In this document: positions 4,188 to 18,174 of the stretch, one piece after another
How the letters are laid out: each line of letters begins with the position of its first letter
How positions within the stretch are numbered: position 1 is the first letter of the stretch
DNA from: JBFLXN01 sp040755715 [NCBI: Candidatus Edwardsbacteria bacterium]
Lineage (GTDB): Bacteria > Edwardsbacteria > AC1 > JBFLXN01
Assembly (NCBI GenBank): GCA_040755715.1
Contig: JBFLXN010000025.1
Span: 1 to 23,255, forward strand
DNA length: 23,255 bases
Reading direction: 5' to 3'
Program-made: the position numbers and the translations under genes
The notes under the pieces: generated by a model
What the model was told of the DNA's origin: nothing
Databases searched by the model: none
Seen by the model: the letters and a program-made list of their open reading frames with translations, nothing else

Positions 4188-4875
4188 TCCAGATTTCTCC
4201 AAAAAGTTTTTCTTGTTTTGCTTTGATTTTTTTAAGTCTCATCAATTCAAGTAAAGCGAAGAAAGTTACTACTATTATAAGGCGTCTGGTTATCGGACTG
4301 AAAAGTTCAAAAAATGTAATCCTCTCTTTTTCACTTAATATTTGAAGAATATAAATGATTCTTTCTTCAATAGTAATATCTTCTCCGGCAATCTCATAAA
4401 GTGTCACTCTATCAATGCGGTCCACTATAGCCTTAAAAGCTGTTAAGAGGTCAATAATGGCAACATCAGAAGTTTCAGGGATTTCTGGTTCTTCTTCAAA
4501 AGTCAATCTGGGACGGGCAAACAGTTGTCGCTGAAAGATTTCTTTCCGTCCCAATTTGGTAGCAATCTCCTTGAATTTCTGATATTCCAAAAGTTGCAAA
4601 ACTAAATCCTGCCGGGGATCCTCTATTTCTATTTCTTCAGCCTGCGGTCGCGGTAAAAGCATCTGGGCTTTAATCCGGAGCAAAGTAGCCGCCATTACTA
4701 AAAACTCCCCGGCGATTTCTAAATCCAAAATTTTCATTAACTCAAGATATTCAAGATATTGTTGAGTAACCCTGGCAATAGGAATATCATAAATGTCTAA
4801 TTCTTCTTTCTTAATCAAATAGAGAAGGAGGTCCAGCGGGCCTTCAAAGAGGTCAAGTCTAATTTGATAAGACAT
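4174..4875 (-). CDS. scpA: Segregation and condensation protein A
   Basis: A 233-residue kleisin subunit of the SMC-ScpAB condensin complex, which compacts and helps segregate the chromosome. The N-terminal SMC-head-binding region is highly typical: FEGPLDLLLYLI (10-21), then 'IPIARVTQQYLEYL' and 'MAATLLRIKAQMLLPRP' (61-77). The middle is acidic and variable, and the C-terminal winged-helix region follows 'DITIEERIIYILQIL'. Length fits the family. scpB is not adjacent in this window, although the two are often neighbours. The gene overlaps the start of the downstream solute-binding gene, an unusual partnership that suggests shared transcription without shared function. Confidence 0.95.
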   Translation of the reverse strand: MSYQIRLDLFEGPLDLLLYLIKKEELDIYDIPIARVTQQYLEYLELMKILDLEIAGEFLVMAATLLRIKAQMLLPRPQAEEIEIEDPRQDLVLQLLEYQKFKEIATKLGRKEIFQRQLFARPRLTFEEEPEIPETSDVAIIDLLTAFKAIVDRIDRVTLYEIAGEDITIEERIIYILQILSEKERITFFELFSPITRRLIIVVTFFALLELMRLKKIKAKQEKLFGEIWIEKN

Positions 4876-4920
4876 TTCTTACTTTAATGACTCGTCACGG
4901 ATTGTTGCAGAGAAACAATT

Positions 4921-5012
4921 ATTCATTGCAAAATGCAAAATTAACAATTAGCATCTCAAAATTATTTTCTCCATTGATAATTGCTAATTTTGGATTGCTA
5001 ATTTTAAAATGA
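4921..5012. repeat. AT-rich self-similar inverted repeat in the scpA/cyclase gap
   Basis: The word attgctaatttt occurs twice in direct orientation (4980-4991 and 4994-5005). Related complementary words (aaaattaacaatta, near 4938-4951) lie on the left, so the block can fold as an imperfect stem. There is no U-tract or coding sequence. Confidence 0.5.
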
Positions 5013-5045
5013 AATTTATCCCATTCACTATGTTCTCTGAAGACC

Positions 5046-7304
5046 CTACTTGGTTTTCATCACAAAGGTTCCATCCCAATCCGAAGGAGGAGGTGTTTCC
5101 TTAAATTCCAAGCATCGTTCAAGATAGGTCTTGCTTGGACCATCTTCGGAATTAATCCCCAGTGCTTCTTGGAAGGCTGATATACCATCGTCCCAGCGTC
5201 TTTCCAAAAAAGATTTCAGCCCACGATGATAGTGTTCTAACATAACTGTTTCTGGAATAGAGAGTCCTTTTTCTTTACTGGCTAATAGTTCAAAAACCCG
5301 TTCGGGTTTTGTTTTGCCCTTAACAGTCAGCCATCCCAAATCTCTGACAATTACTAAATTTTTCACCTTTTCGCAAGTGCTTTCGCTAATCATTATTTGT
5401 GTTTTGTATTCTTTGTTAGCGCCTTCTAATCTTGACCCAAGGTTGATTTCATCTCCTAAAGCGGTATAGGCAAATTTCTCCTTAGAGCCCATGTTGCCGA
5501 CAATTGCCTCCCCAGTATTCACTCCCCAACGAGTAAAGAGTGTTGGTTTTCCTCGCTTTGTGAAAGAGACATTGATTTCTTTCAATTTTTCTCTCAGAGC
5601 CAAGACACACCGAATTGCCCTAGAAGCGTGGTCTGCTTGGTCTACTGGTGCACCCCAGAAAGCCATAATGGCGTCGCCTTCGTATTTGTCCACATAGCCG
5701 CCGTACTCTAAAATCACATCAGTCATAGCGGTGAGATATTCATTAATTAAAGAAACCAGCTCTTCTGGAGTCATTTGTTCGGCAATAGTGGTAAAAGCTT
5801 GGATGTCAGAAAAAACTACGGTGACTTCTTTTCGTTCACCACCTAATTTTAGCATCTCCGGTTTTTCCAGCAATTTGTTCACCAATTCTTTTGACATATA
5901 CTGCTGGAACATTCCTTTAATCTGAAGTTTGCGCCTCTCTTCAGTCACATAGCGATAAATCATTACGACCAGATAAGTAAGAAAGAGAGAAACAATTGGT
6001 CTTATAACTTCAATCCAAATTCCTGAATGAGCAAAGAGAAAATAGGCAACTATCAGATAGACAAGTACCATAGTGACAATTAGTAGCCCTCCCCGTAAAG
6101 CTCCAAGGAGGTAAGCAATTAGACCAGCCAAAATGGCCAACCCAAAGACACAAATCAGAGAGATCCAAAAAGGAGTTTTCACCATAAAATTCCCTTTTAA
6201 GATATTGTAAGCCACATTGGCATGAATTTCCATTCCCGGATAATTCGGAGAAAAAGGTACTGCCCTCAAGTCAAATAACCCTGCCAAGGATGTGCCAACA
6301 ATAACAATCTTATCCTTAAAATATTCCAAAGGCACTTGTCCAAGTAATAAATCAGAATATGAAATATAGCGAAACTTTCGGTAGGAACCAATGTAGTTTA
6401 TGAGCATTCTTCCCTCATCGTCAATCAGAATCTTTCTTCCAGCCAAATCAACATATTTGCCCAAAACTACTTTTATTTTCTCTCTGGAAACACCTAATTT
6501 ATCTAAAACCATTTGTAATGCTAAAGCGGGGTAACATTTTTTTCTATAGGAAAGAAAAAGAGGTAAGGCTCTCACGACACCATCGTCATCCTGTTCCACA
6601 TTTACAAAGCCTATTCCTCTGGAGGCATCGCAAAATTCTCTTAAGGGAATTCCTACATTCCCAATAAAATTAAGTCCTTCCGGAGTATGAAGATAAGAAT
6701 AAGCTTCGGTGACTTGAGAATCAAAAGAAAAAGCAAATCGTTCTATTGATTCGTCAGACACTTCTGATTCGCCTCCAGTCCCAAAGTAGTAACCAAAGTA
6801 GACATTGTTGGATTCTTTAACAATTTCGGACAAGTCAGCATCAAATCCACTGGCATTCAATACTTGTCTGATTATCATTGCCGATTTTTCTGGTGGCAAA
6901 TCTATTTTAAGAGATTCAGCCAGTTCAAGAGCAATTTTAGTTGCTTTAGTCTCTTCGTAGAGAGAAATAATTTCCGGTCTCAAGCTGTCTGATTCAAGAA
7001 AGAGAATATCAAATCCAATAGCTGACGCTCCACCCTTGGTTAGTTCATCAATAATCTTCGCATGGTAAAGTCTAGGCCATTGCTGAAACCTACCTAATTC
7101 GGCAACTGACTTTTCATCAATGTCAATTAAGACCACATCATCAATATCCTCTATTCCTGGCGGCCCAACCTTCAGGAAAAATCTCAAATCATAAGTTTTG
7201 TTTTCAAAATCAGAATAGAGTTTTGGGAATAAGAAAGTAATGAAAATCACGAGCAAAGCTATCCCAGTCCCTAAAAGTGGTCCCATAATTCTTTTCTTCT
7301 TCAT
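5046..7304 (-). CDS. CHASE2-domain class III adenylate/guanylate cyclase
   Basis: A 752-residue membrane nucleotide cyclase. In order: an N-terminal transmembrane helix (about 7-27), an extracytoplasmic CHASE2 sensor (about 35-370), three transmembrane helices (about 378-450), the catalytic domain (about 490-670) and a helical C-terminal tail (about 685-735). Both metal-binding aspartates are present (D500 in FSDIQAF, D544 in YEGDAIMAFWG), with K540, D618 (ALGDEINL), N621 and R625. The set suits an active adenylate cyclase, though Lys/Asp prediction of substrate is not proof. The ending PPPSDWDGTFVMKTK is typical of CHASE2-cyclase proteins. The ATG has GGAG 6 nt upstream. It follows the HD-GYP gene, so two cyclic-nucleotide enzymes are adjacent. 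Confidence 0.95.
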   Translation of the reverse strand: MKKKRIMGPLLGTGIALLVIFITFLFPKLYSDFENKTYDLRFFLKVGPPGIEDIDDVVLIDIDEKSVAELGRFQQWPRLYHAKIIDELTKGGASAIGFDILFLESDSLRPEIISLYEETKATKIALELAESLKIDLPPEKSAMIIRQVLNASGFDADLSEIVKESNNVYFGYYFGTGGESEVSDESIERFAFSFDSQVTEAYSYLHTPEGLNFIGNVGIPLREFCDASRGIGFVNVEQDDDGVVRALPLFLSYRKKCYPALALQMVLDKLGVSREKIKVVLGKYVDLAGRKILIDDEGRMLINYIGSYRKFRYISYSDLLLGQVPLEYFKDKIVIVGTSLAGLFDLRAVPFSPNYPGMEIHANVAYNILKGNFMVKTPFWISLICVFGLAILAGLIAYLLGALRGGLLIVTMVLVYLIVAYFLFAHSGIWIEVIRPIVSLFLTYLVVMIYRYVTEERRKLQIKGMFQQYMSKELVNKLLEKPEMLKLGGERKEVTVVFSDIQAFTTIAEQMTPEELVSLINEYLTAMTDVILEYGGYVDKYEGDAIMAFWGAPVDQADHASRAIRCVLALREKLKEINVSFTKRGKPTLFTRWGVNTGEAIVGNMGSKEKFAYTALGDEINLGSRLEGANKEYKTQIMISESTCEKVKNLVIVRDLGWLTVKGKTKPERVFELLASKEKGLSIPETVMLEHYHRGLKSFLERRWDDGISAFQEALGINSEDGPSKTYLERCLEFKETPPPSDWDGTFVMKTK

Positions 7305-7323
7305 CTTTTTCTCCGAAGATTAT

Positions 7324-7335
7324 GTCAAATTTGAC
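7324..7335. promoter_or_regulatory. Perfect 12-bp palindrome upstream of the cyclase gene
   Basis: GTCAAATTTGAC is a perfect palindrome starting 20 nt upstream of the cyclase ATG. On the minus strand it abuts a -10-like CATAAT, so it could be an operator. No regulator is identified. Confidence 0.35.
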
Positions 7336-7349
7336 CACAAAATATGAAA

Positions 7350-7457
7350 CGATAAGATGTTGATATGTTTTTATACGCTGATACGGAAAGGCTTTTTACT
7401 TATCAGCGTATCATCCTATTACCCCATATTGCCTTATCAACATATCGCCGTATCGCC
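7350..7457. repeat. Self-similar inverted repeat (GATA-word spacer)
   Basis: Perfect 10-bp arms tacgctgata (7374-7383) and tatcagcgta (7401-7410) sit inside a larger imperfect palindrome. It is built from variants of gatacgg, gatatg and gttgata, with related words near 7350-7370 and 7434-7457. It occupies most of the gap between the HD-GYP and cyclase genes. No U-tract marks it as a standard terminator. Confidence 0.55.
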
Positions 7458-7472
7458 ATTTTAGTTGATAAT

Positions 7473-9158
7473 TTAGCCCTTTTCCATAGCCCGACAGAAA
7501 GCCTCTACTGCTTCAGGGTCAAATTGTGTAGTTGTATCTTTTTTAAGTCTTGAAATAGCTTCTTCTCTACTTAAACCTTTCCGGTATGGTCTATCAGAAG
7601 TCATCGCGTCGTAGGCATCCGCTACGCAAATAATCCTTGCATCTTGAGAGATATTATTATTTTTCAAGTGGTCAGGATAACCTCCTCCATCATAACGTTC
7701 GTGATGATGTCTGATGGCCGGAATCATCTCTTTCATTTGTTTGATTGGAACCATAGCTTCAGCCCCTCTAGCAGGATGTTGTTTCACTATGGCAAATTCT
7801 TCATCGGTCAGTTTATCTGGCTTTTTTAAGATGCTGTCGGGCATACCGATTTTCCCTACATCGTGGAGAACTCCTGCTAATTCTAAACGTTTTAAATCGT
7901 CCTCCTCATATCCCATTTCCTTGGCAATCATTAGACTATATTTTGTCACCCTTTCAGAATGACCGGCGGTATATTCATCCTTAGCATCGATGAGAGATAC
8001 TACTGTCTTAATTGAATTCACGAATAGTTCCTGCAAATCCTGATAAAGCCTAGCATTTTCTACAGCGATAGCTGCCTGACGGGCCAATCCCTCAAAGAGT
8101 TCTACATCGTCTTTAGTAAAGGTACCCTCACCAATTTTGTTCAACACTTGGGCTACGCCAATAACTTTGTCTTTAACCTTCAGAGGCACAGCTAAGATTG
8201 AACGAGTTACAAAACCTGACTTTTTGTCAACTCTCCCAAACCATCTCGGGTCCTTGGTTACATCAGACACTAATTCCGTTTGCCCCTTTTCTGCTACTGC
8301 CCCTACAATGCCTTTACCCCAGGGAACTCTAATTTTCTTTACCTCTTCTCCCTTTTCTCCAGTGGCAACTTCAAAATAAAGTTCTTTGGTTTCTTCATCA
8401 ATTCTAAAGATTGAACTTGCCTCAGCCCCAATCACATTTTTTGCTTCATCCATTACTGACTGTAATACTCGGTTCAAATCCAGACTAGAAGAGATGATAG
8501 CGCTCGTTTCTACTAAGGTCTGAATTCTATTCATTTTTTCTCTCATTTCACCATAAAGACGGGCATTTTCTATGAGAGTTGCCAGATGAGAACTCAACAA
8601 TTCTATAATTTCAAGGTCCTCTTCAGTAAAGTCTTGTTTTTGAACTTTGTTAATCAACTCAATCACACCCATTACATTCTCTTTCAGTTTCAGAGGAACG
8701 CAGAGAATATTATGAGTGGCGAAACCAAGTTTCTCGGCGAATTCTTTCTTCCATCTCGGCTCTTTAGTGACATCATTAACAATTAGAGGAATACCAGTCT
8801 TTGCTACCCAACCGGCAATACCTTCGCCCAAAACCAAATGTGCATCCTTTAATCCTTCGCTGGCTTCTCCTTTGACCACTACAAATCGCAAGGTTCTTTT
8901 CTCGGGTTCAACCAAGAGCAAAGAACTTGCCTGGCAAGCCGCAATTTCCTCAATTAAGTCCATCACTTTATCCATCACCGCATTGATGTTCATTGTGCTT
9001 GAGGCAATTTCGTTAATTCGCTGTAGGATTTTCACCTTCATTTTTAGATTAACCAATTGGGTAGCTATATTAGTTTCTGACGATTCTTTTAGGATTTTTC
9101 TCGGTGCAGTTCTGGTAGTCTTTTTGCGGCTATTTTGTTTTTTCTTAATGAGTGTCAT
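7473..9158 (-). CDS. Tandem-GAF HD-GYP cyclic-di-GMP phosphodiesterase
   Basis: A 561-residue cytoplasmic protein. A basic N-terminus is followed by two GAF domains (about 58-200 and 225-372), each with the 'GEGIAGWVA'/'GKGIVGAVA' and 'VPLK' landmarks, then an HD-GYP hydrolase domain (about 385-560). The catalytic set is complete: H400, the HD pair H432-D433 (LHDVGKIG), H461, H484-H486, the GYP motif HHERYDGGGYP (485-495) and D514 (VADAYDAM). The expected reaction is hydrolysis of c-di-GMP, with GAF-sensed input that cannot be named. GGAGG lies 4 nt before the ATG. The promoter is the downstream copy of the duplicated 46-bp element at 9173-9218. Confidence 0.96.
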   Translation of the reverse strand: MTLIKKKQNSRKKTTRTAPRKILKESSETNIATQLVNLKMKVKILQRINEIASSTMNINAVMDKVMDLIEEIAACQASSLLLVEPEKRTLRFVVVKGEASEGLKDAHLVLGEGIAGWVAKTGIPLIVNDVTKEPRWKKEFAEKLGFATHNILCVPLKLKENVMGVIELINKVQKQDFTEEDLEIIELLSSHLATLIENARLYGEMREKMNRIQTLVETSAIISSSLDLNRVLQSVMDEAKNVIGAEASSIFRIDEETKELYFEVATGEKGEEVKKIRVPWGKGIVGAVAEKGQTELVSDVTKDPRWFGRVDKKSGFVTRSILAVPLKVKDKVIGVAQVLNKIGEGTFTKDDVELFEGLARQAAIAVENARLYQDLQELFVNSIKTVVSLIDAKDEYTAGHSERVTKYSLMIAKEMGYEEDDLKRLELAGVLHDVGKIGMPDSILKKPDKLTDEEFAIVKQHPARGAEAMVPIKQMKEMIPAIRHHHERYDGGGYPDHLKNNNISQDARIICVADAYDAMTSDRPYRKGLSREEAISRLKKDTTTQFDPEAVEAFCRAMEKG

Positions 9159-9172
9159 AGGTCCTCCATAAT

Positions 9173-9218
9173 ATTTTTTGTCAATTTAAAGATAGCATAT
9201 TCAATTGAAGAAAGTCAA
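9173..9218 (-). repeat. 46-bp direct repeat, copy 1, carrying a promoter
   Basis: Identical over 46 bp to 12167-12212. On the minus strand it holds -35 TTGACT (9213-9218), an 18-nt spacer and an extended -10 TGC-TATCTT (TATCTT at 9189-9194). The palindrome TTCAATTGAA (9200-9209) lies between the two boxes, where a repressor could act. It sits about 15 nt upstream of the HD-GYP start codon. Confidence 0.85.
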
Positions 9219-9219
9219 C

Positions 9220-9276
9220 AAAAAACAAACCCCTCCCTTATTGTTCTCTCTTGTAGGGAGAGAACGAAGGTGAGGG
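9220..9276 (-). terminator. Rho-independent terminator of the propeller/peptidase unit
   Basis: On the minus strand the stem has a perfect core GTTCTCTC / GAGAGAAC (9258-9265 with 9243-9250). It is extended by imperfect pairing of CCCTC with GAGGG-type sequence and is followed directly by TTTGTTTTTT (9220-9229). It ends two bases before the promoter repeat of the HD-GYP gene and so separates the two units. Confidence 0.7.
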
Positions 9277-9753
9277 ATGTTGAAACAGCCCTTTTTTGTG
9301 CAATAAAAGCACATTCTTTTATTCCTAGAATTCTAAGCAGTGCTTTGTTAAATTTTGGCTCAAAATCTGCCTGAAAGCCTTCTGGCACAATAATATAAGC
9401 CTCTGAGGCACTTTTCTTGTGCTTTTGAGGAGGCCCTGAAGTAATCCCGCCAAAGGCGGGACTCTGTGTGAAACGGTGGATAAGTTTTTCAGACGAAAGC
9501 ATCCTTGCCGGTTTCTGTTCTGAAAAACCCACAGTGAGCACATAGAGTTTCGTGGCTTCAGAGCATTTCTTCTCTGCAGGCAAAATTGCTTGGGCTGTCT
9601 TTCTCTTGGTGAACAAGCCCAGAAGGCTTAAACGCTTGTCAGTGTTGATTTTCGTGCCAATTTTAGACAAAATTTTAACAAAGTCGTGTCTAAGAATTGT
9701 AAGAATGGCAGACTGTAGCTACAGCTTTATCAGCAACCCCAGTAAGGGAAGAG
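9277..9753. other. About 480 bp without a gene I can support
   Basis: Lies between the peptidase gene and the terminator. It contains a GC-rich hairpin (TCCCGCC-AAA-GGCGGGA, 9445-9461) and a perfect palindrome CTGTAGCTACAG (9713-9724). A long minus-strand open frame (TTG start at 9670, stop at 9215) crosses it, but it has no ribosome binding site, no recognisable domain, and runs through the terminator. It may be a decayed gene or a repeat element. Confidence 0.5.
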
Positions 9754-11136
9754 TTACCACACCAAAATCATCTTCTTTGTGGCGGAAAAATCACCCGCTT
9801 GTCCGCCGTTAGTTTGGCGGGCAGTCAGACGGTAAAAATACACGCCCGCCGCTACCCGCTTTCCGCTCTCATCCCTTCCATCCCAAGTCACCTTGTAAGC
9901 TCCTGGAGTTTTAGGCTCCTGCACTAATGTTTTGACTAACTGTCCAGCAGAGTTGTAGATTTTTAATGAAATGTTGCTCTCAACTGACAACTGATACTTG
10001 ATAACTGAGGACTGATTGAATGGATTAGGGTAATTGCTGAGCAGTGAAAAGGTCAAAATTTCATCATCTTTTAGGGCTCTTTCTTCAACTCCTACAGGAT
10101 TATTTACTATCACCTGCTGACTATCTACAGAGACATTCCCATATTCATCATATACCCAGCCCAAAACCCAGTAAGTGCCGTTTGGAAAATCCTTTGTCCT
10201 CCATGTCCCGGAGGTATCCGAGATTTCCACAATTGAATCTCCATCCGTATTTGTGACTATATAATAATATTGTCTTATATCATAGTCACCGTAAGTGCTG
10301 CATGTCGCATCGTTTTTGAATATGGTATTCACGATAGCAGAATTATCCCATTCCAGTTTATGAGCGAAATAGAAAGAGAGAGTTTTGGGAAGATTTATTG
10401 GCCCATGGATTTCATATTCTATTTTATGGGGGTTTATCATCTCCCAGATTGGATTTGTAGGAATAGATTGACCGAACTTATCATATATCCTCGCAACTAT
10501 ATCAACATCTCCGGATAAATTATTTGGGGAAAGATAATCACTTGTGTTATTTTTGCAGAATGCAAATTTAGAGCCAGGCAGCGCCTCTTCTATTACAGGT
10601 TTTGATGTATCTTCGTCTGGAGAAGCGAATATGAGCGGATTTTCAATGAATAACCAGGTTGCAGACGTCCAAATCTTCCCCGCATTCCTTATCCTGGCAA
10701 AATGTATATGGTCAAATCCCGAAACAGGCCAGGGAACAACATATCCAATTATCTCTCCTGTTGTTACCCAATCCCCTATATTTCTATGCGGGCGATTCGG
10801 GTCAATATGTGCATATAGCCAAGCATCTGAAGAATCAGCCCAAGAGGTATCTTTGTCAGATATTGCAAGTCTCCAGTGGTATTGAGCCGCAGTGGTAAGC
10901 CACGCCTTCACCCATCCATCCTCAACGGTTCTGCATTCCCTTCCAACCGTTATTCCCATCACATCAATTCCAGGATGCAGATACGGGGCTCCCCCGTAAT
11001 TCTGATATTCACCCCATCCATTTCCAAGTGGATGAAGTGAATCCTGTGGCGGAATACACCAGCCTATCCCAAAGGAATTTCCCGCTGTGATTAACAGAAT
11101 AGAAAGAAAAAGAAGCAGAAGCATTTGACTTTTCAT
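9754..11136 (-). CDS. Secreted M23-family metallopeptidase-like protein with C-terminal sorting domain
   Basis: 460 residues. A signal peptide (about 1-23) is followed by an M23/LytM-like domain (about 30-175). The zinc-site residues H54 and D58 (HPGID) and H145 (HIHF) are present, along with H110 (LYAHID) and H143, so it could cleave peptidoglycan or another peptide. A beta-rich middle region follows. Residues about 363-460 form a FlgD-Ig/type IX-secretion-type domain: 'LLSNYPNPFN', 'IYNSAGQLVKTL', 'VTWDGRDESGKRVAAGVYFYRL'. The run RQTNGGQA (440-447) interrupts the usual 'TAGDFSATKKM' ending and is encoded by a palindromic element. The gene starts 6 nt after the upstream propeller-like gene, so the two form an operon. 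Confidence 0.88.
   Translation of the reverse strand: MKSQMLLLLFLSILLITAGNSFGIGWCIPPQDSLHPLGNGWGEYQNYGGAPYLHPGIDVMGITVGRECRTVEDGWVKAWLTTAAQYHWRLAISDKDTSWADSSDAWLYAHIDPNRPHRNIGDWVTTGEIIGYVVPWPVSGFDHIHFARIRNAGKIWTSATWLFIENPLIFASPDEDTSKPVIEEALPGSKFAFCKNNTSDYLSPNNLSGDVDIVARIYDKFGQSIPTNPIWEMINPHKIEYEIHGPINLPKTLSFYFAHKLEWDNSAIVNTIFKNDATCSTYGDYDIRQYYYIVTNTDGDSIVEISDTSGTWRTKDFPNGTYWVLGWVYDEYGNVSVDSQQVIVNNPVGVEERALKDDEILTFSLLSNYPNPFNQSSVIKYQLSVESNISLKIYNSAGQLVKTLVQEPKTPGAYKVTWDGRDESGKRVAAGVYFYRLTARQTNGGQAGDFSATKKMILVW
9796..9822. repeat. Small palindromic element inserted in frame in the peptidase gene
   Basis: The arms GTCCGCC (9801-9807) and GGCGGGC (9816-9822) pair over 7 bp with one G-U. Bases 9796-9819 (24 nt, eight codons) encode RQTNGGQA, which is absent from the usual form of this sorting-domain ending. 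A related hairpin is at 9445-9461. Confidence 0.5.
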
Positions 11137-11142
11137 TTCACT

Positions 11143-12150
11143 TCACCTCACTTTTTCAAATATATATGTTTTCTCCGCTCCTTCAACAAATAGAATCTTT
11201 CCATCCGGAGAGAATTTTACCAAGGGGCGATGGATGCTCCACCCTCCAAGAAATACATCTCTCTCCCAGACTTTCACTCCATCTTTTGCATAGAGCAAAA
11301 CTTTACCATTATTGTATCTTTTTGACTCCTCTGCATTTTCTCCTTCATCTTTTGAAACCCCACTTGCTATTATCTCATCTTCTGAGATATCAATGGATGA
11401 ATATGTAAGACAAGGGTCGCTGAGATGCTTTTTCCAAACAAGAGATAACTTCTTAGAATCAAAGAGACAAAGGTTTCTTGGAGTTATACAAGCTATGATT
11501 TTGCCATCTTTGGAAAAGCAAAGCTGGTAGGCAAAAGGTTCCTCAAGACTTACACTTGCAATTTCTACCCCATTCCTGTAAAGTTTGACTTCCCCCATCT
11601 CTTCAAGTGTAGCAAGCCTTCCATCAGGTGAAGAGGCAAATATACTTCCACTTCCTTTAATCCGGTAAAGTTCCTTCCCACTTGCATTAAATGTATGTAT
11701 CTCTCGGAATGAAGTCTTAACAAAAAAGATGTTTTCTCTGGATGCGAAAACACCTCCTTCAAATCCTTTTATTTCCGCCTCTCTTCTTTTTTTCCCTACC
11801 TCATTATAAAATGTGAGATAAGAAGTTAAACCCTCAACTCCTGCTCCCTTTAATCCGATGGTTGTCTTTCCATCATTTGAAATCCAGAACCAATTTTCCT
11901 TCGTGTTCCATTTCTCCCACAAAAGCGTTCCGTTTTTGTTCTTGAGAGCAAAGTGTTCAATAGTTCCGTCTTTCCCAAACCGGGTCTCACTCCAAAAATT
12001 TCCATTTTCGGATTTAATCCCGTAAGACGGCACTGTCGGGATTTCCTTTGTAAGCCTCATCTCCAATGCAGACAAAACAAAAAAAGACGGAGATAAAAAC
12101 CCAAAAATGAAGGTGATGAGAAAAAGTAGCATCTCATATTTTTTGAACAT
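11143..12150 (-). CDS. Exported beta-propeller-like protein
   Basis: 335 residues with a signal peptide or membrane anchor (hydrophobic about 7-29, possibly cut after LSA). The rest is beta-rich and repetitive, with recurring strand/turn patterns such as 'FGKDGTIEHFALKNKNGTLLW', 'ISNDGKTTIGLKGAG', 'FSKDGKIIACITPRNLCLFDSKKLSLVW' and 'FSPDGKILFVEGAEKTYIFEK'. These are typical of WD40/PQQ-like blades, suggesting a surface or periplasmic propeller. No catalytic motif is seen. GGAGAA precedes the ATG. Transcription probably starts at the duplicated 46-bp promoter (12167-12212), and the M23 peptidase gene follows directly. A joint role at the cell envelope is an inference. Confidence 0.75.
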   Translation of the reverse strand: MFKKYEMLLFLITFIFGFLSPSFFVLSALEMRLTKEIPTVPSYGIKSENGNFWSETRFGKDGTIEHFALKNKNGTLLWEKWNTKENWFWISNDGKTTIGLKGAGVEGLTSYLTFYNEVGKKRREAEIKGFEGGVFASRENIFFVKTSFREIHTFNASGKELYRIKGSGSIFASSPDGRLATLEEMGEVKLYRNGVEIASVSLEEPFAYQLCFSKDGKIIACITPRNLCLFDSKKLSLVWKKHLSDPCLTYSSIDISEDEIIASGVSKDEGENAEESKRYNNGKVLLYAKDGVKVWERDVFLGGWSIHRPLVKFSPDGKILFVEGAEKTYIFEKVR

Positions 12151-12166
12151 TTCATTCTCCTTTTAG

Positions 12167-12212
12167 ATTTTTTGTCAATTTAAAGATAGCATATTCAATT
12201 GAAGAAAGTCAA
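12167..12212 (-). repeat. 46-bp direct repeat, copy 2, carrying a promoter
   Basis: Perfect copy of 9173-9218: -35 TTGACT (12207-12212), TTCAATTGAA palindrome (12194-12203) and -10 TATCTT (12183-12188). It lies just upstream of the propeller-like gene (ATG at 12150). The sequences on either side of the two copies are unrelated. Confidence 0.85.
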
Positions 12213-12456
12213 TGAAAAGCGGTCTGAAGCAACCAATTCCAGCAAAAACCATCGCAAGACATACCCACAAAGTTAAATCTCTCATATTCATCCTTTTCAC
12301 CCCCCTCTCTTGCTGAACGAGTTTTTGACAAACATTTCTTAACACAAGAGAAACCCGGCTCAAAAGTCAAGACCTTTGCCATTCTTCGGAACCTGTCCGT
12401 CATTGTCAGTGTAGCGGAACAAGATAGCATTTAATATGCGTCAGGCGAAGTGGCGG
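12213..12456. other. Gap between the methyltransferase gene and the promoter repeat
   Basis: No supportable gene. Two short overlapping minus-strand open frames (12209-12430 and 12175-12363) lack ribosome binding sites and domains. The string TGCTATCTT (12421-12429 on the minus strand) repeats the extended -10 of the 46-bp repeat, but no matching -35 is placed correctly. It could be the remains of another copy or an unrecognised RNA. Confidence 0.4.
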
Positions 12457-13476
12457 TTATTTTTTCTCCCGACATAATGAATCCCCCACTTTAGAAAAGT
12501 GCGTGGATGAAAACAAATCGCTCTGTATTTCTCTAACCATCTCGTATTTTATTGTTTTTCTCCTCTTGTGGAGCAAGCAGATTTCTTCTTTTTCTAATTC
12601 TAATGAATCTTTCGGAATAACAAATGCGTCTTTAATCTTATCCCAATCTTTGTTTCTTAGTGTTACTACAGTATCAAGAAAAATACTAACATGGCATTCA
12701 TTTACTATTGTTGGCTCTACCTGTTCCAGTTTACTATTCGTTATCTCAACATACTTCGGATCAATATCAATCCCTATAAATTTTCTTCCCAATTTTTTCG
12801 CTGCAATTGCTGTTGTCCCAGTGCCGATAAATGGGTCGAGCACAATGTCTGCCTCGTCAGTACTCATAAGTAGCAACCTCTCAAGGAGATGGATTGGAAG
12901 TTGACAGGGATGTTCGTCTCTCCTTTTCTTATGCCTAATTCTGTGAATATCTGTCCACACATCAGACACAAGTGGTCCAAATTGATGCATCTGGCTTTTC
13001 TTACCGCCATAGTCTTGCAAGATATAATGGCAGTTCCTACAACGTTTATGCAACATTCTAATATCGTAAAACTTAAATTCGTCAGACTTCACATAATATA
13101 AAATTCCATAGTGATTAGGCAAAAGCGTTTTGCCAAGAGGAGAACCCATCGCATCCCAGGCAATCCAATGGCGAAAGGTAGCAATTTCATTTAGATAAGA
13201 GCCAAAATATATCAACCATTTTGGAATATTATGAACAAAAATTGAACCTGTGGGTTTAATAATACGAACCATTTCAGTAAGCCACTCTTTGCACCAAGAG
13301 AGATATTCTTGAACTTCATGTTTATCATAATAACTGTTATATTTCTTTTTCAGGTTAAATGGCGGGTCAGCAAAAGTGACATCAACGCTATCATCTGGAA
13401 TTTTTCTCATAACTTCTAAACAATCGCCTTGGATAATAGTGTTTATTAAACTCTCAAAATATTTTTTATCCGGCAT
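12457..13476 (-). CDS. Beta-class DNA methyltransferase (adenine-N6 or cytosine-N4)
   Basis: 339 residues. The catalytic motif DPPF (37-40, in VTFADPPFNLK) comes before the SAM-binding motif DPFIGTGTT (214-222, followed by FIGIDID). This order defines the beta group of amino-methyltransferases. The target-recognition region lies between them and contains a Cys/His cluster (CRNCHY, 146-151). The tail after about 250 is an extra segment of unknown role. The start overlaps the endonuclease stop by 11 nt, with AGAGAGAT upstream. It would protect the host from the endonuclease encoded just upstream. Recognition sequence cannot be read from the protein. Confidence 0.93.
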   Translation of the reverse strand: MPDKKYFESLINTIIQGDCLEVMRKIPDDSVDVTFADPPFNLKKKYNSYYDKHEVQEYLSWCKEWLTEMVRIIKPTGSIFVHNIPKWLIYFGSYLNEIATFRHWIAWDAMGSPLGKTLLPNHYGILYYVKSDEFKFYDIRMLHKRCRNCHYILQDYGGKKSQMHQFGPLVSDVWTDIHRIRHKKRRDEHPCQLPIHLLERLLLMSTDEADIVLDPFIGTGTTAIAAKKLGRKFIGIDIDPKYVEITNSKLEQVEPTIVNECHVSIFLDTVVTLRNKDWDKIKDAFVIPKDSLELEKEEICLLHKRRKTIKYEMVREIQSDLFSSTHFSKVGDSLCREKK

Positions 13477-14443
13477 GAAATATCTCTCTTAGTAAATTCT
13501 CAAATCTTTCAAGTTCGTCCTTGCTAAATGTAAAAACAAAATCATAAGCCTCAACCATACGCTTTAGGTCGCCTCTTCTCACATACCAACCGATTCCGTC
13601 CACAAAACCAACAAAAATTACATTCGGATAATTTTTCTTCAAATAATCAGCGACTGTCTTTTCAGTCTTTGCTTTATCTCCCATTCCAGAAGCAGTTGTG
13701 ACAGAGTAGGAACATTCAATTATTATCTTTGGAGCAGTCTTATTGGGAACAATAAAATCCATCGTTCTTGGAATATTACCTGCTTCAGGAATTTTGAACT
13801 TACCCTTTTCAAAACTCAATTTATTAACCGTTAGAATTTGTTCAATTACAACTTCAGGATTACCTTCTGTGGCAGCTTTATATGAACCCTTTGTTTTGTA
13901 TCTGATTATAGTATCAACCATAGACTCTATAGAGAAACCAAACTTGTTTATATTAAGTTTCTTAAACTCAAAAAGTGGTAGAACCTTTTTTATTACAGGA
14001 ACCGTTGGTCCCTTAAAAAATAAATTTACAATACCTTCAGCAAATTTTTTGTTTGTTTTGATAACGGATTTTATCTTGTCCAGACCCCATTCTGTTTTGA
14101 AATCCTCGCTTGGCCAAGAATCTTTATTAACAAGTGTAGATAGAGTTTCATCATCCGCGGCTCTAATAAATGTTACTAACCTTTGCAAACTTTCTTTTGA
14201 AAAACCAGTTATAGTTAAAATTGCATCTAGACCATCTTCTACTTCCGTGATGTGTTTCAAGAGAACTGATTCTTTTAATCCTTCCTGCTCTATCTTGTTT
14301 TTAAGAAGAAAAATATTCTGAGCGATCGCAGAAATATATCCTTCATGGTATTCTTCAAACTCTACATTCTGGAAATAGAAGGTGTTTTTTGAGATTACAG
14401 TATTGAACTTTTCATCTAATGAAGGATAATGTGTTGCAGACAT
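13466..14443 (-). CDS. Type II restriction endonuclease, DpnII-like
   Basis: 325 residues. A helical N-terminal part (about 1-190) is followed by a nuclease core: D229 (RTMDFIV), then E243 in KIIIECSYSVTTASG, with K257, K259 and K262 in GDKAKTEKT. The second acidic residue is followed by C-S rather than x-K. This recalls the DpnII/MboI family, where the lysine of the PD-(D/E)xK site is likewise displaced. GAGGT precedes the ATG. It sits 7 nt after the upstream nuclease-like gene and overlaps the methyltransferase by 11 nt, which strongly supports a restriction-modification role. The DpnII-family assignment is from pattern memory and is the less certain part. Confidence 0.75.
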   Translation of the reverse strand: MSATHYPSLDEKFNTVISKNTFYFQNVEFEEYHEGYISAIAQNIFLLKNKIEQEGLKESVLLKHITEVEDGLDAILTITGFSKESLQRLVTFIRAADDETLSTLVNKDSWPSEDFKTEWGLDKIKSVIKTNKKFAEGIVNLFFKGPTVPVIKKVLPLFEFKKLNINKFGFSIESMVDTIIRYKTKGSYKAATEGNPEVVIEQILTVNKLSFEKGKFKIPEAGNIPRTMDFIVPNKTAPKIIIECSYSVTTASGMGDKAKTEKTVADYLKKNYPNVIFVGFVDGIGWYVRRGDLKRMVEAYDFVFTFSKDELERFENLLREIFHAG

Positions 14444-14450
14444 TTTTACC

Positions 14451-15149
14451 TCATTTCGGCAGCTCTTTTATTAGCGATTTTAATTCTACAACCTCGATAT
14501 ATTTAGGGCATTTATCCCAATCATGTTCCCAACATACAATTATATTTGCTGCCTCACCTTCTTTTGTTGGATGATTGTCCCGTTGATATTCAGAACTTTT
14601 AAACTGAAATTCGATTGTTTCCCTCACCCAAGCACGCCCATTGAATCGTCTACCTACAGCATCAGGAAAATGTTCCTTTATCTCTTCTATTTTTATTCCT
14701 ATTTCATCATTTACCTTGCTGAATAAGAAAACTACACCCTGCTCATTGATTGGTGCAAAGGTAAGCCCTCTGAAATCAATAACTTCTCCAACTTGAGAAA
14801 TTTCTTTTCCCTTACGATATGTAAAACCAAATTTCTTAACTTCTTTCCCTTCAAAAATTCTTCCGACTGTAAATCTATATTTTTTGAAGCGTTGAATAAC
14901 TTCAATATCTATTTCTGTGTTTGCCGATATAGAATGTTGTCTGAACCAACCAGTAAGTCCATGTATTCTTCTATCAGTAGTCGTGTAAACTGCATAATTT
15001 AACTCTACTCCATATTTACTATCATCAAAAAGCACCTCTATTTTTGCACTTTTCTTTGGAAAAAGTGGTATAAGATCTTTTCTTATAGAAATAAAACCTA
15101 ACTTCACGTTAATTGGTGTGACCTTTTGGCTTATTTTATGTGCTTTCAT
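14451..15149 (-). CDS. Probable R-M accessory protein: B3-like N-terminus and nuclease-like C-terminus
   Basis: 232 residues. The N-terminal half (about 10-115), with 'RRIHGLTGWFRQHSISANTEIDIEV', resembles the B3-like DNA-binding barrels found in some restriction enzymes. The C-terminal half opens with DFRGLTFAPINEQGVVFLF (125-143), contains 'ETIEFQFKSSEY' (177-188) and 'NIIVCWEHDWDKCP' (202-215), and ends with VELK (221-224). I read this as a PD-(D/E)xK-like fold with E222 and K224, but the expected catalytic Asp before IVCW is Asn202. Strong Shine-Dalgarno GAGGAGG. It is the first of three tightly packed genes with the endonuclease and methyltransferase. It could be a second nuclease, a specificity subunit or an inactive regulator. 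Confidence 0.55.
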   Translation of the reverse strand: MKAHKISQKVTPINVKLGFISIRKDLIPLFPKKSAKIEVLFDDSKYGVELNYAVYTTTDRRIHGLTGWFRQHSISANTEIDIEVIQRFKKYRFTVGRIFEGKEVKKFGFTYRKGKEISQVGEVIDFRGLTFAPINEQGVVFLFSKVNDEIGIKIEEIKEHFPDAVGRRFNGRAWVRETIEFQFKSSEYQRDNHPTKEGEAANIIVCWEHDWDKCPKYIEVVELKSLIKELPK

Positions 15150-15245
15150 TGCACCCTCCTCAAAAACAATATATACTCATCCTTCATTGTATTCTGTATC
15201 CCTTTTATTGGCTTTATAATTTTCTGGTCAAGGAGAAATCCATTT
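15150..15245. other. Leader of the R-M cassette
   Basis: The gap before the cassette holds GAGGAGG 5 nt from the ATG at 15149 and some -10-like words (TACAAT, TATATT). A TTGACC occurs near 15220-15225 on the minus strand, but no well-spaced -35/-10 pair is clear. No repeat or terminator is seen. Confidence 0.3.
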
Positions 15246-15356
15246 TTATTGCCATTTCCTCATAGGCAAATCAGATATCAGACTGATTTCTGAAATTGAT
15301 TCAACTTCCGTATCCGCGTCTAAAATCTTTTCCCCATCCATATTTGTTTTAATCAT
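15246..15356 (-). CDS. Possible small protein upstream of the R-M cassette
   Basis: A 36-residue frame, ATG at 15356, with GAGAG 8 nt upstream and a -10-like TAATAT at 15373-15378. The protein is acidic with a basic end (MIKTNMDGEKILDADTEVES, then hydrophobic residues and PMRKWQ). The frame stays open upstream to a GTG (15392) and a TTG (15395), but those run into the terminator at 15397-15441, so I prefer the ATG. It ends 96 nt before the first R-M gene. It could be a small regulator or a gene remnant. No family is recognised. Confidence 0.35.
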   Translation of the reverse strand: MIKTNMDGEKILDADTEVESISEISLISDLPMRKWQ

Positions 15357-15396
15357 ATATTTTTCTCTCTTTATATTATCCTCTATAAGCACCAAG

Positions 15397-15441
15397 AAAA
15401 AACCTACCCCTCACCTTCATCTCCTGATGCTTTATGAGAGG
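15397..15441 (-). terminator. Rho-independent terminator of the dap operon
   Basis: On the minus strand the stem is CCTCTCA (15435-15441) with TGAGGGG (15407-15413), including one G-U. An inner CATC-AGGA-GATG stem follows, then TAGG and a T6 tract (15397-15402). It lies just after the lipoprotein gene and separates the dap block from the R-M block. Confidence 0.65.
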
Positions 15442-15449
15442 CGAATGCT

Positions 15450-15899
15450 TCATTCTAGCGGCACGGGGAAGACATAGACCCTTTCTATCCTTTTAGAACG
15501 CAGATTGACAATAAAATGTTCAGCATAACCAGCGAAAATCTGATGATGTGGAATCCCGGCAAAATAGTGCATCAGAATTTTTCCATTCTTCTCATCCAAA
15601 AATGCACTGCGATAGGCAAACTCAAGATTCTTATCTTTTGTCTCTGGACATTTTTGAGCAATTTCATTCGGTAGGGGCGACCCGTTGGGTCGCTCCCTAC
15701 ATTCAATTTCCTTACGAATTTTCTTAATTAGTTTTCCATAACTCGTCCTGACTGGATGCAGTCCGCGATGAGGATACCTTCCGCAAACAACAAAAGAATA
15801 GTCACTATCTAAACTCCTCCTAAAGTTACTACTTTTCTGATGGAGACAAGCAAGCATTACCAAGAAGAAAAAAAGAATCCACTTAGGAAAATTCTTCAT
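15450..15899 (-). CDS. Small hypothetical lipoprotein
   Basis: 149 residues. I choose the ATG at 15899 because it forms an ATGA overlap with the dapL stop; an ATG at 15914 would add five residues. The N-terminus is a lipoprotein signal (MKNFPKWILFFFLVMLACLH, candidate lipidated Cys18). The mature part has several Cys and aromatic residues ('FVVCGRYPHRGLHPVRTSYG', 'LMHYFAGIPHHQIFAGYAEHF') but no domain I recognise. A 30-bp palindromic element (15671-15700) is inserted in frame and encodes most of CRERPNGSPLP. It is probably translated from the dapL message. Confidence 0.7.
   Translation of the reverse strand: MKNFPKWILFFFLVMLACLHQKSSNFRRSLDSDYSFVVCGRYPHRGLHPVRTSYGKLIKKIRKEIECRERPNGSPLPNEIAQKCPETKDKNLEFAYRSAFLDEKNGKILMHYFAGIPHHQIFAGYAEHFIVNLRSKRIERVYVFPVPLE
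15671..15700. repeat. Palindromic element inserted in frame in the lipoprotein gene
   Basis: GTAGGGGCGACCC (15671-15683) and GGGTCGCTCCCTAC (15687-15700) pair across a GTT loop with one bulge. The element is exactly 30 bp, so it keeps the reading frame. Very similar G/C-rich palindromes are known as dispersed intergenic repeats in many bacterial genomes (recalled, not checked). Confidence 0.7.
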
Positions 15900-17074
15900 C
15901 TTGGTTTTTTCCATTCAACCATTTTGATTCTTTTTACTGCTTCCTTGATTCTTTCTGTCGGCGCTGTTAAAGCAAAGCGAATATATCCTTCACCATATTT
16001 CCCGAAGCCTATACCCGGAGTTACCAGAATACTGCATCTTTCCAGTAAGACTTTAGCCATTCCTATGGAATCATAGCCGGAGAGCACTGGAACCCAGAGA
16101 TAAAAAGTTGCCTTGGGTTTTTCTACTTTAAATTCTACTTCTCTTAGTCCTTCAGTCAAAATGTCTCTTCTTTCTTGATAGATTTTTCTATTCTTTTCAA
16201 CACAATTCTGAGGTCCAGTCAAAGCAGCAATCCCGGCATACTGAATTGCCTGAAAGACACCAGAGTCACAGTTTGTCTTAATTTTCAGAAGACCTGCTAA
16301 TATTTCTCTATTACCGCAAGCCCAACCAATTCTCCACCCGGTCATATTGTATGTCTTGGAAAGCGAATGGAACTCAACCGCTACTTCCTTTGCTCCTTCA
16401 ATTTCCATTAGACTAACTGGTTTATAGCCATCATAGGTGATTTCAGAATAGATGCCATCATTGATAATGATTATCTTATGCTTCCTGGCAAAAGAGATTA
16501 ACTCTCTGTAAAATTCAAGTGGAGCTACTGCCCCGGTGGGATTATTGGGATAATTCAAAAATATTACTTTTGCTTTAGAGAGAATTTTGGAGGCAATTCT
16601 GGAAAGGTCTGGGAGGAAATCATTTTTCGCCAAGAGTGGTAAATCGTAAACAATTCCACCAGTAAAGAGAACTTGCGCTTGATAGACAGGATAGGCCGGA
16701 TTAGGCACCAGCACATAATCGCCCGGGTCAATCAGAGCCCAGGCAATGTGAGCAATTCCATCTTTAGCCCCGATGATTGTGAGCACTTCTTCTTCAGGGT
16801 CTAAAGTTACGTCAAAGCGTTTTTTATACCACTCGGCCACTGCCTGACGGAATGCTAAGAGTCCGTTATAACTTGGATAGCGGTGATTTGTCGGGTCTTT
16901 TGCCGCCTCGGCTAAAGCCCGGACGATGTGTTCTGGTGTAGGTAAATCAGGGTCGCCTTCACCCAGTTCAATTACATCAATTCCTCTTTGTTGCGTCTCT
17001 CTTTTAAGTCGCTTCAGTTCTGCGAACAGATAAGGTGGCAGTTTAGAAATTCTTTCAGCGGGCTTAATTGGCAT
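15896..17074 (-). CDS. dapL: LL-diaminopimelate aminotransferase (probable)
   Basis: A 392-residue fold-type I PLP aminotransferase. Landmarks: 'ELGEGDPDLPTPEHI' (36-50), 'RYPSYNGLLAFRQAVAEWY' (65-83), NYPNNPTGA (174-182), D206 and Y209 (NDGIYSE), the PLP lysine K240 in SLSKTYNMTGWRIGW, and R248. These fit the DapL/MalY-like group, which converts tetrahydrodipicolinate plus glutamate to LL-diaminopimelate. The nearby dapA and dapB support this function over aspartate or alanine aminotransferase, so this organism probably uses the one-step aminotransferase route to diaminopimelate. GAGGA precedes the ATG. The downstream lipoprotein overlaps by 4 nt. Confidence 0.85.
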   Translation of the reverse strand: MPIKPAERISKLPPYLFAELKRLKRETQQRGIDVIELGEGDPDLPTPEHIVRALAEAAKDPTNHRYPSYNGLLAFRQAVAEWYKKRFDVTLDPEEEVLTIIGAKDGIAHIAWALIDPGDYVLVPNPAYPVYQAQVLFTGGIVYDLPLLAKNDFLPDLSRIASKILSKAKVIFLNYPNNPTGAVAPLEFYRELISFARKHKIIIINDGIYSEITYDGYKPVSLMEIEGAKEVAVEFHSLSKTYNMTGWRIGWACGNREILAGLLKIKTNCDSGVFQAIQYAGIAALTGPQNCVEKNRKIYQERRDILTEGLREVEFKVEKPKATFYLWVPVLSGYDSIGMAKVLLERCSILVTPGIGFGKYGEGYIRFALTAPTERIKEAVKRIKMVEWKKPR

Positions 17075-17388
17075 TTTTTATCCTCGTAGGATCGCTAAGA
17101 GGCTCGTAGTAAACGCTGTATCATTTCACTCGTAGAGGAATCGCAGGAAACGTCACAATCCATTGGAATCATCCCTACGATTACTCCGTTTCCTACGTCT
17201 TCTACGGCTTCTACGTTGTTTCTCTCCCACGATTACTCCGTCTCCTACGAGTCCCGCCTTAGCAGAACGATACTCCGACTACTCCGAATAATAGCAATAC
17301 TTTGTTTCATGGAATTTGGTTTTCCACAGAGACAACCCGTATCTACGGGAAAAGGCCTCTAACAGAGTTAAGGTAAGGCGGAGCGATT
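17075..17388. repeat. Self-similar spacer between dapB and dapL
   Basis: Built from variants of CGTAGGA, GTAATCG and GGAAACG. A 24-bp unit at 17174-17197 recurs at 17226-17249 with two mismatches. Complementary versions around 17110-17151 allow imperfect folding. No gene. The distal part (about 17300-17388) shows nothing clear. Confidence 0.6.
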
Positions 17389-18174
17389 TCAAAGAAGTCC
17401 CAATACCTCCTGCATATTATAAAGTCCCGGTTTGGCTTTAACTACAAATCTAATAGCTGCCAATGTGCCGTAGGCAAAGGTATCACGACTATGTACCCGA
17501 TGAGTTAATTCAATTCTTTCACCAGGACCGGCAAACATGACCGTGTGTTCACCAACAATATCCCCTCCCCGTATCGCAAAAATGCCAATCTCACCCTTCT
17601 TTCTCTCTCCAATCATCCCTTTCCTCCCGTAAACTAAGCAGTCATCTATTTTTTGACTTCTCGTTTTTGACAGAATCTCGGCGAGTCTCTGAGCTGTCCC
17701 ACTTGGAGCATCCCTTTTTAACCGATGGTGTGCCTCAGTAATCTCTATGTCATAATCATCACCTAAAATGCCTGCCACATCTTTTACTATCTTAAAAAGA
17801 AGGTTAACCCCGATGGACATATTGGGAGAGAAGACACAGGGAATTTTTTCTGTCAAAGACTTTATTTCCTTCAATTCATCTGATTGAAATCCAGTAGTTC
17901 CAATAATCATCGGTTTATTTGCTTTTGAAACAACTCTGAGGTGTTCTAAAGAGGTTTTGGGATTAGTGAATTCTATAACGACATTAGCAAATTCAATAAC
18001 CTTAGAAAGGTCATCACTGATGAAGGCTTCGCTGCCTCGCAGACGCTGACCGAGTAAATCGTGACCTGGAACTTCTATCCCAGCGATGATTTTCATGTCT
18101 TTCTGCTGAGAAATCATAGAAACAAGATGGGTGCCCATCTTTCCACAGGCACCGCAGATAATGACATTAATCAT
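17389..18174 (-). CDS. dapB: 4-hydroxy-tetrahydrodipicolinate reductase
   Basis: 261 residues; second committed step of diaminopimelate/lysine synthesis, reducing hydroxy-tetrahydrodipicolinate with NAD(P)H. The Rossmann motif is GACGKMG (8-14). GTTG (92-95) and SPNMSIGVN (116-124) follow, and the catalytic motif EAHHRLKRDAPSGTA (147-161) contains H149/H150 and K153 for substrate and proton transfer. Length is typical. GGAGG lies 9 nt before the ATG. It is transcribed after dapA, across a gap filled by a near-perfect inverted repeat, and before dapL. Confidence 0.97.
   Translation of the reverse strand: MINVIICGACGKMGTHLVSMISQQKDMKIIAGIEVPGHDLLGQRLRGSEAFISDDLSKVIEFANVVIEFTNPKTSLEHLRVVSKANKPMIIGTTGFQSDELKEIKSLTEKIPCVFSPNMSIGVNLLFKIVKDVAGILGDDYDIEITEAHHRLKRDAPSGTAQRLAEILSKTRSQKIDDCLVYGRKGMIGERKKGEIGIFAIRGGDIVGEHTVMFAGPGERIELTHRVHSRDTFAYGTLAAIRFVVKAKPGLYNMQEVLGLL

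What the first reader, a model, noticed from the sequence alone, without database searches (positions are those of the whole stretch)
9173..12212. A perfect 46-bp promoter duplication joins two unrelated transcription units
9173-9218 and 12167-12212 are identical over 46 bp, while their flanks are unrelated. Each copy carries -35 TTGACT, an extended -10 (TGC TATCTT) and the palindrome TTCAATTGAA between the boxes, and each lies just upstream of a start codon. One drives a c-di-GMP phosphodiesterase and the other an exported propeller plus M23 peptidase. The region between (9219-12166) begins with a terminator, so it looks like a self-contained cassette inserted next to, or together with, a copied promoter. 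Shared control would link c-di-GMP turnover to a surface or secreted protein pair.
Basis: partly seen in the sequence, partly recalled or inferred. Interest (0 to 1): 0.66.

Follow-up and report, generated by a model that had tools for sequence, protein, structure and literature searches.

The report
Copied promoter before two unrelated operons
A bacterium from a little-studied phylum carries two identical 46-letter promoter-like sequences 3 kb apart, one before a signalling-enzyme operon and one before an exported protein pair, most likely because a promoter was copied locally, an uncommon but known kind of event.

Summary
9173-9218 and 12167-12212 are identical over 46 bp, the only exact repeat of 20 bp or more in the window, direct or inverted. 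Each copy runs from a -35 box to 14 or 16 nt before a start codon; only 3/200 and 1/200 base shuffles score as high as promoters. One unit is a GAF-GAF-HD-GYP gene, adjacent to a CHASE2-cyclase gene in 10 of 10 genomes of the closest phylum found. The other is a beta-propeller plus LytM-like M23 gene, a portable pair: in 10 of 10 loci examined (of 29 propeller places) an M23 gene follows, and none of these loci holds the HD gene. The 46-mer core is absent from 157 genomes of two phyla. Nine of nine readable HD relatives keep a different promoter with a longer leader, so the window's HD promoter looks replaced. In 1.6 Mb of control DNA, nine local intergenic repeat pairs (three clusters) occur; none is promoter-to-promoter. 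Best reading: local promoter copying or capture, a new member of a known kind. Direction, mechanism, promoter activity and shared regulation are unproven; the window's own genome is not held.

The parts
9173..9218 (-). 46-bp repeat copy 1: core promoter-like site (TTGACT, N18, TGC-TATCTT) of the HD-GYP unit
   Evidence: identical to copy 2; promoter score reached by 3/200 base shuffles
12167..12212 (-). 46-bp repeat copy 2: core promoter-like site of the propeller/M23 unit
   Evidence: identical to copy 1; promoter score reached by 1/200 base shuffles
7473..9158 (-). GAF-GAF-HD-GYP protein (predicted c-di-GMP phosphodiesterase)
   Evidence: Pfam GAF_2, GAF, HD_5; best matches at 61-65% identity in 10 of 10 genomes of the phylum
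5046..7304 (-). CHASE2 + class III nucleotide cyclase, conserved downstream neighbour of the HD-GYP gene
   Evidence: Pfam CHASE2 and Guanylate_cyc; next to HD in 10 of 10 relatives
11143..12150 (-). beta-propeller protein, probably exported
   Evidence: profile of 10 homologues matches WD40/beta-propeller structures, best E 2.3e-45; hydrophobic N-terminus by eye; Pfam PQQ_2 below its cut-off
9754..11136 (-). LytM-like M23 peptidase with C-terminal T9SS type A sorting domain
   Evidence: profile of 9 homologues matches LytM and lysostaphin, best E 5.4e-06; 9 of 9 members hit Pfam Peptidase_M23 at E<0.01, the window's own domain at 17.9 bits, below the 28.7 cut-off; H54, D58, H110, H143, H145 invariant; TIGR04183 36.8 bits against cut-off 23
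9219..9283 (-). terminator-like hairpin with T-rich tail, at the end of the propeller/M23 unit and directly before copy 1 (ends approximate)
   Evidence: fold of 9215-9310: z -3.85, 0 of 200 shuffles fold as well

Best explanation
A 46-bp core promoter of the housekeeping type (sigma-70-like, extended -10) was copied over about 3 kb, so that two unrelated transcription units now start from identical promoters. Unit 1 is the conserved HD-GYP/CHASE2-cyclase pair. Unit 2 is a portable two-gene module, an exported beta-propeller plus a T9SS-tailed LytM-like peptidase. Shown: exact identity, boundaries at promoter-like boxes, two unrelated genes behind, and the patchy distribution and separate location of the module in relatives. 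Inferred: (a) the HD unit lost its phylum-typical promoter (TTGCTT-N17-TA(A/C)AAT with a leader of 44-106 nt) and took the short-leader promoter of the module upstream of it; (b) this happened by a local illegitimate event (tandem duplication then deletion, or template switching) that kept only the promoter; (c) the copy is recent or maintained, since there are no differences; (d) any joint expression is passive, from the same core promoter, not from a dedicated regulator.
For: Only exact repeat of 20 bp or more in the window; promoter scores above nearly all shuffles, -10 boxes 30 and 32 nt before the ATG; phylum-typical HD promoter and longer leader in nine of nine readable relatives but not before the window's HD gene; an M23 gene beside the propeller in 10 of 10 examined loci, none containing the HD gene; 30-bp core absent at up to 3 mismatches from 157 genomes and an exact 31-mer absent from viral contigs; of 9 local intergenic repeat pairs in 1.6 Mb of relatives, none has both copies before same-strand starts.
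Against: No transcription data. Relatives are distant (61-65% identity in HD; 21-26% in the propeller), so loss of the typical HD promoter could be ordinary divergence. The direction of copying rests on leader length and -35 type only, and propeller relatives give a convincing promoter in only 4 of 8 by the scan. The scan ranked the conserved HD box first in 6 of 9 relatives, where up to 23/200 shuffles did as well; its conservation, not its score, is the evidence. Genome-wide copy number of the 46-mer is unknown.
Confidence: 0.55

Rival explanations
1. Insertion with long target duplication: the propeller/M23 module landed in the HD promoter and the 46 bp of target was duplicated, leaving one copy on each side and giving the module the HD promoter.
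For: The direct repeats flank the module exactly; a type II restriction-modification system lies immediately upstream, and such insertions are described as frequently associated with R-M genes (passages of PMC1643837); two-copy repeats of 64 and 42 bp lie on either side of two ORFs each in relative G006, by crude ORF calls.
Against: The duplicated target would by coincidence coincide with the promoter core; no empty site found; the HD promoter does not look ancestral; the module, not the R-M genes, lies between the repeats.
Confidence: 0.22
2. The 46-mer belongs to a family of short promoter-bearing repeats scattered in this genome (a multi-copy mobile promoter), and two members happen to lie close together.
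For: Two identical copies before unrelated genes; short repeats assumed to act as promoters are described in the literature (passage of PMC8049555).
Against: No third copy in 23 kb; 30-bp core absent from 10 + 147 genomes at up to 3 mismatches. The own genome could not be searched.
Confidence: 0.13
3. A selected regulon: the palindrome TTCAATTGAA is an operator for a dedicated regulator, and identity is kept by selection or gene conversion so that c-di-GMP turnover and the surface proteins switch together.
For: A perfect 10-bp palindrome lies in the spacer of both copies and occurs nowhere else in the window.
Against: An operator would not require identity across all 46 bp; TTCAATTGAA is absent from the 160 nt before HD in 9 of 9 readable relatives; no DNA-binding regulator among the ten window proteins scanned with Pfam (not all genes were scanned); the module and HD are not linked in the ten loci examined.
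Confidence: 0.08
4. Assembly error: a short repeat misjoined two contigs.
For: No whole genome is held for the window, so it may come from a metagenome assembly.
Against: A 46-bp repeat is shorter than a normal read (general knowledge); HD and the cyclase lie in the same order in 10 of 10 relatives, with ScpA further on in 8 of 10, which agrees with the sequence downstream of copy 1.
Confidence: 0.02

Closest known systems
Mobile promoters / promoter propagation (Matus-Garcia et al. 2012; van Passel et al. 2014; known here from citing papers and recall)
   Same: near-identical promoter-like DNA before non-homologous genes in one genome, with no transposase
   Different: only two copies known, 3 kb apart, in adjacent units; genome-wide copy number unknown
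Promoter capture by local duplication or deletion (passages of PMC11111574)
   Same: a coding unit acquires a neighbour's promoter by illegitimate recombination
   Different: here both units keep a copy and only 46 bp is shared; the event was not observed
Insertion with long target duplication (Nobusato et al. 2000, via passages of PMC1643837)
   Same: direct repeats flank a gene module; an R-M system lies nearby
   Different: the repeat is a promoter core; no empty site; the R-M genes are outside the repeats
Regulatory switching of intergenic regions (passages of PMC9944727)
   Same: one upstream region replaced by a non-homologous one
   Different: there within a species; here inferred between distant species and for HD only

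Membership tests
mobile promoter (defining features recalled) | highly similar sequences upstream of non-homologous genes in the same genome | tested here: met
   46/46 identity; genes in different Pfam families
mobile promoter (defining features recalled) | carries promoter signals close to the start codon | tested here: met
   scores reached by 3/200 and 1/200 base shuffles, -10 boxes 30 and 32 nt before ATG; prediction only
mobile promoter (defining features recalled) | dispersal in the genome or presence in related genomes | tested here: inconclusive
   own genome not held; core absent in 157 genomes of two phyla
insertion with long target duplication | relative with an empty site holding a single copy | tested here: inconclusive
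   no relative was found that shares the flanks; the nine readable HD upstream regions lack the 46-mer core
insertion with long target duplication | long direct repeats flanking the inserted module | tested here: met
   9173-9218 and 12167-12212 flank the propeller/M23 pair
transposon, insertion sequence or integrative element | transposase or integrase between the repeats | tested here: not met
   the two genes and the one longer unexplained ORF (9215-9670) between the repeats have no such Pfam or NCBIfam domain
M23 peptidase (LytM type) | HxxxD, catalytic His and HxH motifs (rule recalled) | tested here: met
   invariant H54, D58, H110, H143, H145 in 9 of 9 aligned; window domain below the Pfam cut-off
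HD-GYP phosphodiesterase | HD domain with a GYP motif (rule recalled) | tested here: met
   HD_5 at 2.4e-43; HHERYDGGGYP read in the translation; enzyme activity not testable here

The most novel reading that the evidence does not exclude
A portable exported propeller/peptidase module arriving next to a phylum-conserved HD-GYP/cyclase pair replaced that pair's promoter with its own, so that a horizontally acquired surface system rewired second-messenger signalling in one step, and both are now switched together through the shared palindrome.
Probability: 0.1. Interest if true: 0.55.

Novelty: new member of a known kind. Interest (0 to 1): 0.3.

Why it matters
If right, it is a clean, recent example of regulatory rewiring by promoter copying in a little-studied phylum, with the presumed replaced promoter type still visible in relatives. 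It also shows a recurrent two-gene module (exported propeller plus T9SS-tailed M23 peptidase) in two phyla; its propeller has no NCBIfam match. The regulatory link itself remains a guess.

Tried and rejected
Chance repeat: rejected (46/46 identity; no other exact repeat of 20 bp or more). Mobile-element ends: no transposase or integrase between the repeats. Phage or plasmid sequence: exact 31-mer absent from viral contigs; only weak matches of the 46-mer in plasmids (7 records, best E 0.005); flanks without plasmid match. RNA element: no Rfam match at gathering score. Flank relics: 12213-12456 and 9219-9753 have no blastn hit better than E 0.29 in 2.4 Mb of fetched loci. A 38-aa ORF (12175-12291) that runs into copy 2 has only weak hits (E 0.11 or worse) and is unproven. 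Using HD to find relatives found nothing in genome contigs or viral contigs; the dCMP deaminase did. Literature searches: 'putative mobile promoters' 0 papers; 'Edwardsbacteria' with 'type IX secretion' 0 papers. Matus-Garcia 2012 is not held; van Passel 2014 and Nobusato 2000 were seen only as citations. No paper was read whole; I saw passages of four and search listings of the rest. Structure prediction was not used, because I read its rule as not covering loci taken by the fetch from genomes.

Limits: propeller places examined for M23 were 10 of 29 listed (the best 9 of 28, many of the rest short and weak, plus the single one). In L132 the propeller was not re-found by tblastn and its place comes; in L126 the M23 gene is cut by the contig end. 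HD upstream regions were readable in 9 of 10 relatives (L110 is cut by the contig end). The alignment used 8 of these 9 (without L106); searches used all 9, and one search printed them. The 9 intergenic control pairs lie in three clusters, and its gene calls are crude, so pairs partly inside called ORFs were not counted as intergenic. Pfam was run on 10 of the window's ORFs, not all.

Full report
Observation. The two 46-bp stretches are identical and are the only exact repeat of 20 bp or more in the window, direct or inverted. A tolerant search extends them to 52 nt at 96%. All genes concerned are on the minus strand. Read that way, each repeat begins at the first base of TTGACT, has an 18-nt spacer containing TTCAATTGAA, then TGC-TATCTT, and stops 14 or 16 nt before an ATG, just short of the ribosome-binding site. 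A simple promoter score over the 160 nt before each start codon chose exactly these boxes, and 3 of 200 and 1 of 200 base shuffles did as well (weights recalled). In the general promoter scan of 4000-17400 the same two sites are listed among 45 found against 31.6 expected in shuffles, so a consensus match alone is weak; the exact duplication at two start codons is the stronger argument. Directly upstream of copy 1 is a strong hairpin with a T-rich tail (z -3.85).

Genes. Behind copy 1 is a GAF-GAF-HD-GYP protein, then a CHASE2 cyclase. Both are adjacent in 10 of 10 genomes of the phylum reached through locus L001 (record title UBP2; the phylum also holds the genome of L005, record title Edwardsbacteria), with HD identities of 61-65%. 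Behind copy 2 are a beta-propeller protein and an M23 peptidase. A profile of ten propeller homologues matches WD40-type propellers. A profile of nine M23 homologues matches LytM and lysostaphin, with the catalytic residues invariant. The window's own M23 domain scores 17.9 bits, below Pfam's cut-off of 28.7. It carries a T9SS sorting domain above NCBI's cut-off.

The module. A propeller match at E up to 0.001 is found in 1 of 10 genomes of the closest phylum and 26 of 147 of the WOR-3 phylum, many of them short and weak. I fetched DNA around 10 of the 29 places, the best ones. In 10 of 10 an M23-like gene follows. In L126 it is cut by the contig end; in L132 the propeller place comes only, about 290 bp before the M23 match; in L133 the M23 match is weak (23% identity). 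None of the ten contains the HD gene. The pair is therefore a recurrent, patchily distributed two-gene unit that is found elsewhere in these relatives. The window's M23 is closest to that of G113 (52-53% identity).

Which promoter is native? In nine of nine readable relatives the HD gene has a TTGCTT-N17-TA(A/C)AAT promoter with a leader of 44-106 nt (sequences, alignment of 8 of the 9). The automatic scan ranked that box first in 6 of 9. The window's HD gene has a 30-nt leader and a TTGACT promoter instead. This leans toward the module's promoter having been copied to HD, but the species are distant and the case is weak.

Is it rare? The 30-bp core is absent at up to 3 mismatches from 10 genomes of the closest phylum and 147 of the WOR-3 phylum, and an exact 31-mer is absent from viral contigs. 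In 1.6 Mb from three relatives there are 32 local exact direct repeat pairs of 40 bp or more (17, 15 and 0). Nine are intergenic by a crude gene call (2, 7 and 0), in three clusters: about 0.13 pairs, or 0.04 clusters, per 23 kb. None has both copies upstream of same-strand starts. A local short intergenic duplication is thus uncommon but not extraordinary here; one that copies precisely a promoter was not seen.

Mechanism. I commit to local promoter copying or capture, with the tandem-duplication/deletion or template-switch step inferred. Promoter capture by illegitimate tandem duplication or deletion is described from experiments (passages of PMC11111574). Mobile promoters and regulatory switching are described in the literature (passages of PMC8049555 and PMC9944727; Matus-Garcia 2012 is not held). 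Insertion with long target duplication (passages of PMC1643837) is the main rival, made attractive by the type II restriction-modification system immediately upstream. It needs an empty site, which I could not find.

Regulatory link. Identical core promoters make similar expression likely, but nothing here shows a shared regulator. The palindrome occurs only in the two copies in the window and not in the 160 nt before HD in nine of nine relatives.

Verdict. A real, probably recent, two-copy promoter-like duplication; a new member of a known kind; modest interest.

Noticed in passing
12457-15149: Type II restriction-modification system: N6/N4 methylase, BanI/DpnII-like nuclease and an unassigned 232-aa gene, at lower GC (about 34-36%) than most of the window.
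   Followed up: partly
12175-12291: A 38-aa ORF with a plausible ribosome-binding site runs into copy 2 and stops inside the 46-mer; it may be a truncated gene or a leader peptide. Only weak hits.
   Followed up: partly
9215-9670: A 151-aa ORF between the M23 gene and copy 1 with no Pfam or NCBIfam match and no hit in the fetched loci; possibly gene remains.
   Followed up: partly
9754-12150: Propeller plus T9SS-tailed M23 peptidase form a recurrent two-gene module in two phyla; the propeller has no NCBIfam match.
   Followed up: yes
L133:5289-5907: In relative G007, an imperfect copy (about 50 bp) of the end of a pilus-ATPase-like gene lies on the far side of a small two-gene insert (DUF4160/DUF2442-like; names recalled) next to the propeller gene: another insert between direct repeats.
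   Followed up: partly
L104:13763-14781: A palindromic repeat (CCCCTCCTTGA(T/G)CAAGGAGGGG...) brackets about 1 kb just after the cyclase gene in three relatives (L104, L108, L109).
   Followed up: no
7305-7472: A hairpin-forming sequence (ATACGCTGAT...ATCAGCGTAT, by eye) lies between the HD-GYP and cyclase genes, where in relatives the two protein matches lie only about 25-85 bp apart.
   Followed up: no
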